A stretch of DNA of 64,000 bases from Acinetobacter sp. CS-2. GTDB lineage: Bacteria > Pseudomonadota > Gammaproteobacteria > Pseudomonadales > Moraxellaceae. How positions within the stretch are numbered: the first letter of the stretch is position 1; each line of letters opens with the position of its first letter. Location of the stretch: positions 2,046,001-2,110,000 of the forward strand of contig NZ_CP067019.1 in assembly GCF_016599715.1 (NCBI RefSeq). The letters are read 5' to 3'. Below, piece after piece: positions 701-27,228 of this stretch. The position numbers and the translations under genes are program-made. The notes below the pieces were generated by a model. It was not told the DNA's origin and made no database searches. It saw nothing but the letters and a program-made list of their open reading frames with translations.

Positions 701-1157
701 GGCGATATATAACTTCGTCTAACCTGATAAAAAATTACCCGGTATTTGCTATTTAATCAATCAGTTTATTTCGTAATTTTTTGATAAATATCACGTTTAT
801 TTCACAGCTGATCTGATTTTGAATTGATCACCACAGAAGTTCTATGCTTTGGTCCATAACGACTCACAATTAGACAAACCTAACATGCATAGTCTGCTTT
901 ACTTGCTTTCGTTCTAAGTTTTTGTTTGGGTTGTCACCCCCATGCGAGATTTTTACTCTAAAGCATGTTCTGCTAAGCGACACCAAAGCAGGTTTAAGCC
1001 ACTATGGCTATGAGGTGACGTGAACCGCACTTTCTTAGCTTAGGTATTTTCATGACGTAAATTCCAAAAATCTTGACGTAAATTTAACTGCAATATCGGT
1101 AAAAAGTAGTGATTATAAAAAAGATAGTGCAGATAACGGTGAACATTCCTCAAGACA
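701..1157. other. gene-poor stretch, possibly degenerate prophage sequence
   Basis: No ORF with a plausible start and ribosome binding site is seen. Short open stretches on the plus strand (for example around 940-1020, encoding SKACSAKRHQSRFKPLWL before a stop) look like decayed coding sequence. It abuts a tRNA gene, a common integration site, but I found no duplicated tRNA 3' end marking an attachment site. Confidence 0.25.
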
Positions 1158-23697: not shown

Positions 23698-24507
23698 TTA
23701 ATTTATTGGTAAAACGATGGTCGGATTGATAGGTTTACCATTTAAACGCACCTGAAACTCCAGCATAGTACGATTTGTACCCGTTGAACCCATTTCAGCA
23801 ATTTTCTGCCCTGCTGTCACATTCTGGCCACTGCTCACATTCATTTTGCTGTTGTGGGCATAAGCGGTAATGTAGCCATCGATATGCTTGATCAGAACTA
23901 AATTGCCATATTCTTTCAAACCATCAGCCGCATAGACTACTTGACCATCAGCCGCAGCAAAAACCGCATCTCCAGTATTACCACCATAACGAATACCCTT
24001 TACATTTGCAGCCACATTAAAGTTTGCAATGACTGCGCCATTACTTGGTTTTACCCAGCGCAAAGCAGAGACTTTCGAAGATGCTACGGGGGCAGTCGCC
24101 GTGGTTGCAGGAACTGTAGTTTTAGCCGGTGTAGTCGGAAGTTGAACGGTTTGACGCTGAATCGGTGCGGCTTGGGTCACCGCTTGTGTAGTGGTAGTGC
24201 GACGTGAGCCTGAATCTTTTAAACGTAAAGATTGACCGACATAAATGCGATAGGGTGGCGCTATATCGTTCATATCGGCAACACTGGTATAAGACAGACC
24301 ATAACGTGCAGCAATTCCGCTTAATGTATCTCCAGATCGAACCGTATAGTAATCCGGTGCAGCCGCATAACGTGTTGCATTATGAACTTGTGGTTTTGAA
24401 GCACAGCCACTCAAAATGGCTGTGGCAATAACAGCTGTAGACAAGACCATGGTTTTCAACAAACCCACAGGCGCAGCAAATAAGCGATATGGTGACACCA
24501 AGTGCAT
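23698..24507 (-). CDS. nlpD: NlpD-like LysM/M23 lipoprotein
   Basis: A 269-aa outer-membrane lipoprotein. It has a lipobox at LSGC (about residue 35), a LysM domain (YTVRSGDTLSGIAARYGLS) and a C-terminal LytM/M23 domain. The M23 zinc ligands are altered: the family HxxxD and HxH are partly replaced (RYGGNTGDAVFAAADG; ITAYAHNSKM), as in NlpD/EnvC activators, so it is likely a non-catalytic amidase activator for cell separation. SD AGAGGAAG precedes ATG 24507. It follows surE, as in many proteobacteria. Confidence 0.9.
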   Translation of the reverse strand: MHLVSPYRLFAAPVGLLKTMVLSTAVIATAILSGCASKPQVHNATRYAAAPDYYTVRSGDTLSGIAARYGLSYTSVADMNDIAPPYRIYVGQSLRLKDSGSRRTTTTQAVTQAAPIQRQTVQLPTTPAKTTVPATTATAPVASSKVSALRWVKPSNGAVIANFNVAANVKGIRYGGNTGDAVFAAADGQVVYAADGLKEYGNLVLIKHIDGYITAYAHNSKMNVSSGQNVTAGQKIAEMGSTGTNRTMLEFQVRLNGKPINPTIVLPIN

Positions 24508-24623: not shown

Positions 24624-24926
24624 TTATTTGGAAAACTCTGCATGTAATGTGTGCAAAATCTCATAATTTGTCGCATCCATTTGAATCGGCGTAATGCTGA
24701 CATAGCCATTTGCCACCGCAAAAAAATCCGATTCTATTTCAGTTAAACCTTTTTTAGGTTCAGCGACAGCCTCACCTGACAAACCAATCCAATAAACCTG
24801 ACGTCCACGTGGGTCTACATGACTGCTAATCGGTTTAGATTGACTGCGACGTCCCTGATAAGTAATTTTTGAACCTCTCAATTCAGATATATCTGGAATA
24901 TTCACGTTAAAAATATGACGTGGCGG
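24624..24926 (-). CDS. surE: surE 3' exon (C-terminal 100 residues)
   Basis: Starting at CCG CCA CGT this exon encodes [18 protein letters not shown] and the family stretch [14 protein letters not shown] followed by [18 protein letters not shown]. Joined to the 5' exon at 26761 the frame continues without a missing or extra codon (LPTL|PPRHIF), giving about 256 residues, the normal SurE length (E. coli 253). On its own it is not a full protein: it needs intron splicing. Confidence 0.85.
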
Positions 24927-24966
24927 GGTGAGTAGACCAAGGGAATTTCACCCTTAGCCCCTCGCA

Positions 24967-25000
24967 GAACCGGACATGAACCTCTCAGCTCATCCGGCTC
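24967..25000 (-). ncRNA. group II intron domain V
   Basis: Minus-strand 34-nt hairpin starting GAGCCGG and ending CCGGTTC, with a GAGA tetraloop. The AGC catalytic triad is at positions 2-4. Domain V is the catalytic core of the ribozyme, and its intact look suggests splicing competence. Confidence 0.85.
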
Positions 25001-25003
25001 CCA

Positions 25004-26245
25004 TTATCCAACCGATGGTAAACATCCCATTTTCCAGTGCACAAAGGCATTTGGAAAATCACGCGCAAGTCGCCCTAAGGCATATCTAGCCCGTCTTTTA
25101 TGACGGGCCAAGTTTTTATACTTACGCCTCATCCAGCGTATAAGATAAGCATTCATGTGTTGCCAGATCGCTGACATTGCTGAACCATGGAATCGACCAT
25201 AGTATTGCTGCCAACCTTGAAGAATTGGATTGAATATTGCAGATAAATCACTTAATTCGCGATTACACATCAGATGTAGATGCCATTTCCGAATAGTCTG
25301 TCGCATTGCTTTAAGTGCATCACGACTGACTGCAGGAGAGAAATTTACATAAACTCTTTTATACTTGTCCACAGCCTTACGGGGCCTAAACGTGTACCCG
25401 AGAAAAGTAAATTGAACATCGGGATATGCTTTACGACGATTAATATCTTGGCAATAAACAATCTTTGTCTTGTCTGGATGCAATTCGAGACCACATTCAC
25501 GAAATCGTGCATCGATCTTTTGTAAAACAAGTTTGGCTTGAGATAAACTCCGACAATGAATTACGCCATCATCTGCATAACGGCAGAACCGTACACTTTG
25601 AAGATGTTTCGTAATCCACATATCAAAAGCATAATGCATAAATAAATTCGCCAATAAAGGACTCACAACACCACCTTGTGGTGTGCCGCGATTCCTTTCT
25701 AAAAGATGGCCATTTATGTGTTGCATTGGTGCTTTTAACCAACGTTGCACATATAAAAGAATCCATGGAATTTCACAGTGTTTCTTGAGTGCACGCATGA
25801 GTAAATCATGGTCGATGTTATCAAAGAGACCTTTGATATCAAATTCCACAACCCAGTCATAATCCCAACTTCGTCTCCTCACTATCGCAATTGCATCATG
25901 GGCAGAACGCCCCGGACGATATCCATATGAGTTTGGATGAAATAATGGATCAATTTTCGGCTCTAATAAGAGCTTAACTGCTGTTTGCGCGACTCGATCT
26001 GCAACTGTTGGAATACCTAGTATACGCACGCCACCTGACTTCTTTGGAATCGGAACAGCCTTAACTGGCGGTGGAAAATAACTGCCAGAACAAAGTCGAT
26101 TCCATAGTTTGTATAGGTTGTTCTTTAAATGCTTTTCGAATTGCTCAATAGATTCATGATCAACGCCTGGAGCGCCACCATTCTCTTTGACTTTTTTAAA
26201 TGCCTCCCAGATTAACGCTTTAGGAATGTTAAATGGTTTGGTCAT
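25004..26245 (-). CDS. ltrA: group II intron reverse transcriptase/maturase
   Basis: A 413-aa intron-encoded protein. The RT core is intact (RT-3/4 TVADRVAQTAV, FDIKGLFDNIDH, GTPQGGVVSPLLANL and the catalytic YADD in FCRYADDGVIH), followed by the maturase X domain (ILQGWQQYYGRFHGSA). No HNH endonuclease motif is visible, so mobility probably depends on replication-fork or nicked targets. The start is ATG 26245, with AGGAGGAG about 10 bases upstream; longer readings are intron RNA. No frameshift or stop. Confidence 0.93.
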   Translation of the reverse strand: MTKPFNIPKALIWEAFKKVKENGGAPGVDHESIEQFEKHLKNNLYKLWNRLCSGSYFPPPVKAVPIPKKSGGVRILGIPTVADRVAQTAVKLLLEPKIDPLFHPNSYGYRPGRSAHDAIAIVRRRSWDYDWVVEFDIKGLFDNIDHDLLMRALKKHCEIPWILLYVQRWLKAPMQHINGHLLERNRGTPQGGVVSPLLANLFMHYAFDMWITKHLQSVRFCRYADDGVIHCRSLSQAKLVLQKIDARFRECGLELHPDKTKIVYCQDINRRKAYPDVQFTFLGYTFRPRKAVDKYKRVYVNFSPAVSRDALKAMRQTIRKWHLHLMCNRELSDLSAIFNPILQGWQQYYGRFHGSAMSAIWQHMNAYLIRWMRRKYKNLARHKRRARYALGRLARDFPNAFVHWKMGCLPSVG

Positions 26246-26760
26246 AAAGTTTTGCTCCTCCTGCTTGCACAGTTGACAAATCCGTAGACCTGGATAATGC
26301 AACCCCTTCGCTCCATTACCATTACAGTAACTTCAACACTACTACGAGTTGCTCCGCCCCTTGGTGACGCATTGCTATTATCAGCCTTGCCTTTTGAGCT
26401 TGTGCCTTTCGCTTGACATCGCCACCGAAGGTTCCCGCAGTTCAACGTAAGAGCCTGAATTAGGATCGCGCTGCCTCTACGCCGGACACCGAATGGCCCG
26501 TAAGCAGGTAACGGCCAAACTAATCGCGGGGTAACTTCCATCCCCGGTTTTGATGTCATTTGAGTACTTTCGACACTTGAACGGCAGTTCACTGTTGTTC
26601 GCCTTCCTAATTCTTACCTGACATCTCTACGATGCCTTTTCCATAACGCTCACGACCGGGACTTTTGATCCAAGCCGCTTATGGTGGTTTGCTACCTGCT
26701 CCTGCAAGCCGATAGCGAGGGGCCATACCCTCATCTCTTACGCCGCTTGCTGCGGCACAC

Positions 26761-27228
26761 TAAAGTCGGCAACCCCTGGGCAATAAAATCATGTACCCAT
26801 TTTGCTGCTACGGCATAATCGTTCGGATTGTCATAAGAACGGACATTGGGACCGGCCATGGAGACGGCAATAGCCGGTTGTTTCATTAGGCGGCCTTCGA
26901 AGGCGGCTCCGACAGTACCAGAATAAAGCACATCATCGCCCAGATTTGCCCCACTGTTAATTCCGCTGACCACCAGATCAAATTCAAAATCAAATAAGCC
27001 GTTCATGGACAGATATACACAATCTGCAGGTGTTCCATTGACTGCCCAGACATCTGCTGAAATTTGAACAGGTCGTAAAGGACGATCTAAGGTAAGTGCA
27101 CTGGAAAAACCACTGCGTTCACTTTCAGGAGCAACGATGACTACACGACCAAGGGGAGCCAAAGCTTGAGCCAAGGCCTGAATACCGGGAGCAAAAACGC
27201 CATCATCATTGGCAATTAATATATTCAC
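26761..27228 (-). CDS. surE: surE 5' exon (N-terminal 156 residues)
   Basis: SurE is a 5'/3'-nucleotidase with exopolyphosphatase activity in stationary phase. This exon holds the metal-binding [15 protein letters not shown], the [12 protein letters not shown] stretch and [19 protein letters not shown]. It stops making SurE sequence after LPTL, where intron RNA (GTGTGCC) begins; without splicing translation would add VCRSKRRKR and end at 26731. It is the first gene of the surE-nlpD unit. Confidence 0.88.

What the first reader, a model, noticed from the sequence alone, without database searches (positions are those of the whole stretch)
24624..27228. surE is split by a complete group II intron and the reading frame is restored exactly
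The exon joint (LPTL|PPRHIF) recovers a 256-aa SurE with no lost codon, the 5' end is GTGTG, and domains V and VI and the maturase look intact. Splicing would be needed for SurE to be made. Group II introns without an endonuclease domain usually avoid the inside of conserved housekeeping genes, so this could give intron-controlled SurE levels and polar effects on nlpD.
Basis: partly seen in the sequence, partly recalled or inferred. Interest (0 to 1): 0.75.

Follow-up and report, generated by a model that had tools for sequence, protein, structure and literature searches.

The report
Mobile group II intron inside surE
A mobile, probably self-splicing RNA element that normally lives inside transposase genes has jumped into a bacterial housekeeping gene at a look-alike site, where cutting itself out of the messenger would restore the normal protein.

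Summary
In an Acinetobacter genome, surE (27228..24624, minus strand) is split by a complete 1,834-nt group II intron (26760..24927, same strand) encoding a 413-aa reverse transcriptase/maturase without an endonuclease domain. Removing exactly GTGTG...CTCACC rejoins a 256-aa SurE. All 29 relatives compared have uninterrupted surE with no extra codon at the joint; no other listed genus genome has a split frame. The unusual CC 3' end is confirmed by 24 empty transposase-gene home sites.

Best reading: a recent off-target jump of an IS3-homing intron. Of 21 distinct insertion sites, 17 are transposase-like. The surE site copies the home site (GGGT....GACTTTA|C) and pairs with an EBS1 loop that covaries with targets. 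A second copy, identical over 1,834 bases, lies elsewhere in the genome.

Splicing is plausible but not shown. Intact exons prove little, because the insertion is recent. SurE was not found in 5 of 169 good-quality genus genomes, so loss looks tolerated. Regulation of SurE and polarity on nlpD have no support. RmInt1 jumping into oxi1 is a close published precedent. New member of a known kind.

The parts
26761..27228 (-). surE exon 1 (156 codons, GTG start)
   Evidence: PF01975 E 1.9e-50 (query 26734-27228); up to 97% identity to SurE of other genus genomes
24927..26760 (-). group II intron, 1834 nt, GTGTG...CTCACC
   Evidence: boundaries from the exon joint, from 24 empty IS3 home sites and the junctions of other copies
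26616..26732 (-). Rfam group-II-D1D4-2 match
   Evidence: RF01999, 109.5 bits
26533..26539 (-). EBS1 loop GGAAGTT (intron nt 222-228)
   Evidence: 10-nt hairpin loop in the D1 fold and alignment; covaries with IBS1 across sites
26761..26767 (-). IBS1 GACTTTA, last 7 nt of exon 1
   Evidence: 6 of 7 pairs with EBS1, the same as at the commonest IS3 home site
26774..26775 (-). GG at -15/-14 of the 5' exon, shared by 19 of 21 distinct insertion sites; distal recognition element (inferred)
25004..26245 (-). intron-encoded protein gene, RT + maturase, 413 aa plus stop, no endonuclease domain
   Evidence: AGGAGGAG upstream of the ATG
24966..25001 (-). domain V helix
   Evidence: RF00029 match 24927-25002; fold
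24930..24963 (-). domain VI helix with bulged branch-point A at 24933
   Evidence: fold z -4.69
24624..24926 (-). surE exon 2 (100 codons plus stop); first base C is IBS3
   Evidence: 12 NCBIfam SurE models match it, no Pfam model at E 0.001; joint
23698..24507 (-). nlpD-like gene downstream of surE
   Evidence: ORF; same strand and downstream of surE in 29 of 30 loci, the miss being the own-genome locus L022, which ends before it

Best explanation
A retromobile, endonuclease-less group II intron of a family that homes to the D-[IF]-T-Y-I codons of IS3-family transposase genes moved recently into surE by reverse splicing at a site that mimics its home site (GG at -15/-14, IBS1 GACTTTA, C at +1). 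It sits in the sense orientation, probably in the lagging-strand template. When surE is transcribed, the precursor should be able to splice by the ordinary pathway (branch-point A in DVI, EBS1-IBS1, maturase made from the intron), giving the exact 256-aa SurE; unspliced message gives a truncated 165-aa product. Shown: anatomy, exact boundaries, home-site identity, EBS1/IBS1 covariation, recency. Inferred: that this copy splices in vivo and how well; that the insertion is nearly neutral because SurE is dispensable in the genus.
For: Boundaries and frame. 24 empty IS3 sites among 30 fetched loci, against the occupied ones, give the same CTCACC 3' end. An empty home gene (L081) is an IS3-family transposase (NF033516, 323.5 bits, cut-off 160) with the site in the rve core. 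Of 21 distinct full-length sites 15 carry the IS3 motif and 2 more are transposase-like by my reading of the translation across the joint. GGGTNNNNGACTTTAC, which the joined surE site spells, otherwise occurs once in the own genome, in an empty IS3 copy. EBS1 covaries with IBS1: base -4 and its partner are complementary in 20 of 24 informative rows (Fisher p = 0.003, rows not independent by descent), and L069 has EBS1 and IBS1 changed together. Zero of 1834 differences from the second own copy; 1 difference from plasmid copies L146, L148 and L150, 4 to 5 from the five others compared. The six chromosomal copies whose contig length and dnaA position were at hand are co-oriented with replication, against 8 of 20 empty IS3 copies, Fisher p = 0.017. 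[quoted passage not shown]
Against: No RNA data. Position -1 is an A.G mismatch with EBS1 here, as at the Acinetobacter IS3 sites. The 3' splice site lies in a run of four C (ACC|CCG); a one-base slip would frameshift SurE; RmInt1, with such a run, makes circles with an extra C, although 35 of 35 ligated-exon sequences were correct in vitro (PMC4238363 section 6). Loose matches to the site rule are common: 10 in 127,958 window positions, and GG plus IBS1 plus C gives 5 own-genome sites against 10 for the reversed control pattern, so surE is a good but not a unique match. The only three residues private to this SurE among 12 compared all lie in exon 2, which could hint at relaxed constraint. 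The replication result rests on six sites and on assuming the terminus opposite dnaA; one of the six lies within 5% of it.
Confidence: 0.85

Rival explanations
1. The insertion is in effect a surE knock-out: splicing is too poor or imprecise to give useful SurE, and the strain tolerates the loss.
For: No SurE match in 8 of 175 genus genomes, 5 of them among the 169 at least 90% complete and at most 5% contaminated; the Pfam SurE model finds none in any of the 8. Introns in an IS element and in a plasmid gene are described as very and moderately inefficient at rebuilding exons (PMC3522654 passage); RmInt1 is said to limit its host IS this way (PMC4238363 abstract). Three private residues, all in exon 2.
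Against: The cis elements checked for splicing are present, and near-identical copies are spread over plasmids and genomes, which implies working lariat formation in the lineage. Exons are undamaged, though too little time may have passed.
Confidence: 0.35
2. Splicing of the intron is regulated and sets SurE (and nlpD) levels.
For: Only the position of the intron in the gene and nlpD lying downstream on the same strand.
Against: Recent insertion with no divergence from the second own copy, so little time for adaptation; absent from the relatives checked. The promoter scan found fewer sites than shuffles (4 against a mean of 7.9) and no terminator-like site on the minus strand inside the intron (5 in the region against 3.2), so it says nothing about nlpD.
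Confidence: 0.06
3. Assembly artefact joining two loci through the repeated intron.
For: Two identical copies of the intron exist in the chromosome.
Against: The two sides are the two halves of one surE gene in order, with exact joint, followed by nlpD as in the relatives; the other copy has its own distinct flanks.
Confidence: 0.02

Closest known systems
RmInt1 of Sinorhizobium meliloti (IIB3/class D; PMC5894124 passages and section 4, PMC4238363 abstract and sections 6, 7, 10)
   Same: IEP without endonuclease; homes to an insertion sequence; ectopic insertion in a host gene with similar IBS; bias to the lagging-strand template; C at the penultimate and last intron positions and a run of four C at the 3' splice site
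   Different: Different home (ISRm2011-2). The RmInt1 IEP itself was not obtained, so class D membership is untested; a 54.6%-identical S. meliloti IEP (L155) did not show RmInt1's 1884-nt length
recA intron of Geobacillus kaustophilus (cited in PMC3522654, passage seen; original paper not seen)
   Same: Active group II intron inside a conserved housekeeping gene
   Different: There the gene is called essential and the intron host-adapted; here the insertion is recent and the gene appears dispensable in the genus
groEL-associated intron of Azotobacter (PMC4465626, passage seen)
   Same: Group II intron at a host gene; an A. vinelandii IEP is 71% identical to this one (P0111), but whether it belongs to the groEL intron was not established
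   Different: Lies close to the 3' end of groEL, not in the middle of the frame
E. [quoted passage not shown]
   Same: Home in IS3-family elements
   Different: Sequence relation not tested

Membership tests
mobile group II intron | 5' end GTGYG | tested here: met
   GTGTG
mobile group II intron | domain V and domain VI with bulged A | tested here: met
   RF00029 57.5 bits; fold
mobile group II intron | IEP with RT and maturase domains | tested here: met
   RVT_1, GIIM, TIGR04416 above cut-off
mobile group II intron | EBS1-IBS1 pairing | tested here: met
   6 of 7 pairs at surE; 5 to 7 of 7 over 25 site rows, with covariation
mobile group II intron | 3' end AY (a consensus, recalled; not an absolute criterion) | tested here: not met
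   ends CC, like RmInt1 with C1883 and C1884 (PMC4238363 section 7); distant relatives such as L063 and L076 read GAC at the extrapolated end
mobile group II intron | splicing in vivo | not testable with these tools
   no RNA data
RmInt1-like (class D, IIB) | no endonuclease domain | tested here: met
   only RVT_1, GIIM and a marginal RdRP_1 in 413 aa
RmInt1-like (class D, IIB) | IEP falls in class D on a tree | not tested
   no labelled class references at hand
RmInt1-like (class D, IIB) | lagging-strand-template bias | tested here: inconclusive
   6 of 6 occupied against 8 of 20 empty, p = 0.017, small sample, terminus assumed
group IIC / class C | insertion after terminator hairpins | tested here: not met
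   no systematic hairpin scan was run; by eye one site (own copy 2) follows a hairpin, while 17 of 21 are transposase-like

The most novel reading that the evidence does not exclude
An IS-homing, endonuclease-less group II intron is caught soon after entering a host housekeeping gene in frame, and its splicing (with a four-C 3' splice site open to slippage) now sets how much full-length SurE the cell makes, possibly varying with conditions.
Probability: 0.08. Interest if true: 0.6.

Novelty: new member of a known kind. Interest (0 to 1): 0.35.

Why it matters
It is a clean natural case of a selfish intron leaving transposase genes for a conserved host gene through a home-site mimic, with exact boundaries, an identical sister copy and an empty home site in the same genome. 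That makes a debated question directly testable: how well endonuclease-less bacterial introns rejoin exons when the exon is a host gene. Part of the mimic is coded by conserved SurE residues (GG at -15/-14 and C at +1 in 29 of 29 relatives), which suggests how a host gene can stay a standing target.

Tried and rejected
Considered and rejected: (1) intron end at the canonical AC one base earlier; this would frameshift SurE, and empty IS3 sites exclude it. (2) EBS1 at intron 426-432, a first guess that pairs 7 of 7 with the surE site; dropped because the loop at 222-228 changes with the target in relatives, above all in L069, and the other does not. (3) A classical IBS2 at -8 to -13: these bases vary; only GG at -15/-14 is kept, so I call it a distal element (IBS2 or protein contact, undecided). 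(4) dN/dS of surE as a sign of splicing: low against the three nearest sisters (dN 0.013-0.014, dS 0.37-0.52), but the insertion is too recent for that to count. A first version of this count was out of register by two codons and is discarded. (5) Pattern search GG+7N had the wrong spacing; one search has the right one (5 sites, reversed-pattern control 10, so no enrichment). (6) Identifying L155 as RmInt1: the 1884-nt test failed. (7) Empty sites for own copy 2: sister hairpins are too variable to fix the boundary there. (8) Literature: searches listed no title on a group II intron in surE; one search is uninformative because 'sure' is an English word, and only the listed papers' titles and abstract starts were seen.

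Rows dropped: empty IS3 copies on other contigs and in genomes whose chromosome length was not at hand were left out (8 chromosomes used); the listing is itself cut and capped at four scored per genome. Relatives without both ends under the identity cut (such as L058, L060, L144) are not among the 21 sites. In one search there were 43 plasmid records with a match; 11 of the 40 listed were fetched.

Full report
What is there. On the minus strand of the window, surE (27228..24624) is interrupted by a group II intron of 1,834 nt at 26760..24927. It begins GTGTG, has Rfam matches for D1-D4 and for DV/DVI, a DV/DVI that folds far better than shuffles with a bulged A seven bases before the 3' end, and a 413-aa ORF with reverse transcriptase and maturase domains but no endonuclease domain in Pfam or NCBIfam. 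The D1 region folded alone is not better than shuffles (z -1.36). Joining the exons gives a 256-aa SurE; the two other 3' boundaries tried destroy the frame. Without splicing the frame stops after 165 residues.

Where exactly does the intron end? Two lines show that this is right. First, 29 of 29 surE genes compared from the genus have no codon more or less at the joint. Second, the same intron sits in IS3-family transposase genes, and 24 of 30 fetched home-site loci are empty and readable, all with exactly the sequence that results from removing GTGTG...CTCACC. Copies in Cupriavidus, Undibacterium and Methylocalor plasmids end the same way. RmInt1 of Sinorhizobium also has C at its last two positions and a run of four C at the 3' splice site (PMC4238363, abstract and sections 6, 7, 10 read).

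What the intron is. Close copies are spread over Acinetobacter: 14 of 175 genus genomes have a match at E 0.001, 9 of them full-length, two only of 32 to 48 bases; 31 of 43 plasmid records with a match are Acinetobacter. An empty home gene, L081, is an IS3-family transposase with the site in its integrase core. Collapsing copies with both ends to distinct sites gives 21: 15 carry the IS3 D-[IF]-T-Y-I motif across the joint, 2 more are transposase-like by my reading of the translation (L143, L145), and 4 are other: surE, a hairpin elsewhere in the same genome, and two plasmid sites. So this is an IS-homing intron whose regular home is the transposase core.

How it chose surE. An alignment of D1 from this intron and eight relatives shows a variable hairpin loop at intron nt 222-228. 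Read as EBS1 it pairs with the last seven exon bases in 5 to 7 of 7 positions at all 25 site rows, and changes with them: the EBS1 base facing -4 is A where the target has T, and T where the target has A, in 20 of 24 rows (exceptions L054, L062, L008, L058; Fisher p = 0.003 if rows were independent, which they are not by descent). In L069, a 76%-identical relative in another gene context, both sides are changed and still pair 7 of 7. The surE site has the same IBS1 (GACTTTA) as the commonest IS3 site, GG at -15/-14 as in 19 of 21 sites, and C at +1. The string GGGTNNNNGACTTTAC occurs otherwise once in the 3.57-Mb genome, in an empty IS3 copy. Under looser rules such sites are not rare: 10 in 127,958 window positions, and a GG-spaced pattern gives 5 in the genome against 10 for its reversed control. 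In 29 of 29 relatives GG and C+1 are present in surE, as part of conserved Gly and Pro codons, but only 6 of 29 reach 6 pairs with EBS1.

Replication. dnaA lies at base 7 of the chromosome contig. With the terminus assumed opposite, the surE copy, the second own copy and four chromosomal IS3 copies in three other genomes are co-oriented with the fork (6 of 6), against 8 of 20 empty IS3 copies on the eight chromosomes used (Fisher p = 0.017). This fits insertion into the lagging-strand template as described for RmInt1 (PMC5894124 section 4), but the sample is small, the listing was cut, and one occupied site lies within 5% of the assumed terminus.

Age and effect. The surE copy and the second own copy (C1:1159742-1161575, beside an S24-type repressor-like gene, and a weak DnaA-family ATPase match; I read it as prophage) differ at 0 of 1,834 bases; of eight other copies compared, three plasmid copies differ at 1 and five at 4 to 5. 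The insertion is therefore recent, and intact, low-dN/dS exons are what a fresh insertion would show. The three residues private to this SurE among 12 sequences all lie in exon 2; too few to weigh, but they lean towards relaxed constraint if anything. No second SurE was found in this genome. Of 169 good-quality genus genomes 5 have no SurE match, and the Pfam model finds none in any of the 8 non-matching genomes, so loss appears tolerated. nlpD lies downstream on the same strand in 29 of 29 relatives examined, so one transcript is possible, but no promoter or terminator evidence bears on polarity.

Splicing. The cis elements checked and the maturase are present, and the lineage is mobile, which needs excised lariat. 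I put about 0.6 on enough splicing to give some full-length SurE and leave the amount open. An intron in an IS element is reported as very inefficient at rebuilding its exon (PMC3522654 passage). The ACC|CCG joint is a run of four C, where a slip of one base would frameshift SurE; RmInt1 with such a run made aberrant circles but 35 of 35 ligated-exon sequences were correct in vitro.

Against what is known. Introns in bacterial housekeeping genes are rare but on record (Geobacillus recA in PMC3522654, Azotobacter groEL in PMC4465626, cyanobacterial and CL/ML cases in PMC4424553; passages seen), and ectopic insertion of an IS-homing endonuclease-less intron into a host gene through IBS similarity is published for RmInt1 and oxi1 (PMC5894124). 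This case is a new, well-delimited member of that kind.

Noticed in passing
own genome C1:1159742-1161575 (L002): Second, identical copy of the intron directly after a terminator-like hairpin (GCCTGATC...GATCAGGC) in a region with an S24-type gene; two homologous hairpin sites elsewhere in the genome (L140, L141) are empty.
   Followed up: partly
own genome C1:1545268 (L105): An IS3 home site (GGGTCAGTGACTTTAC) is left empty; it is oriented against the replication fork if the terminus lies opposite dnaA, though only 2.6% of the chromosome from the assumed terminus.
   Followed up: partly
L150 (plasmid p7E072658): A copy between a mobilisation gene and a replication gene, with IBS1 AACTTTC pairing 7 of 7 with EBS1: another non-transposase site.
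   Followed up: no
L151, L152 (plasmids pALWVS1.1, pMsp179): A copy at an unannotated site that resembles a transposase site in its last bases but lacks the D-I-T-Y-I frame.
   Followed up: no
G047, G148, G149 (also G129, G147): Genomes of the genus at least 90% complete without any detectable SurE.
   Followed up: partly
window 829-992 (-): Pseudomonadales-1 RNA (RF03046, 69.9 bits, gathering 68) near a tRNA at 1224-1297.
   Followed up: no
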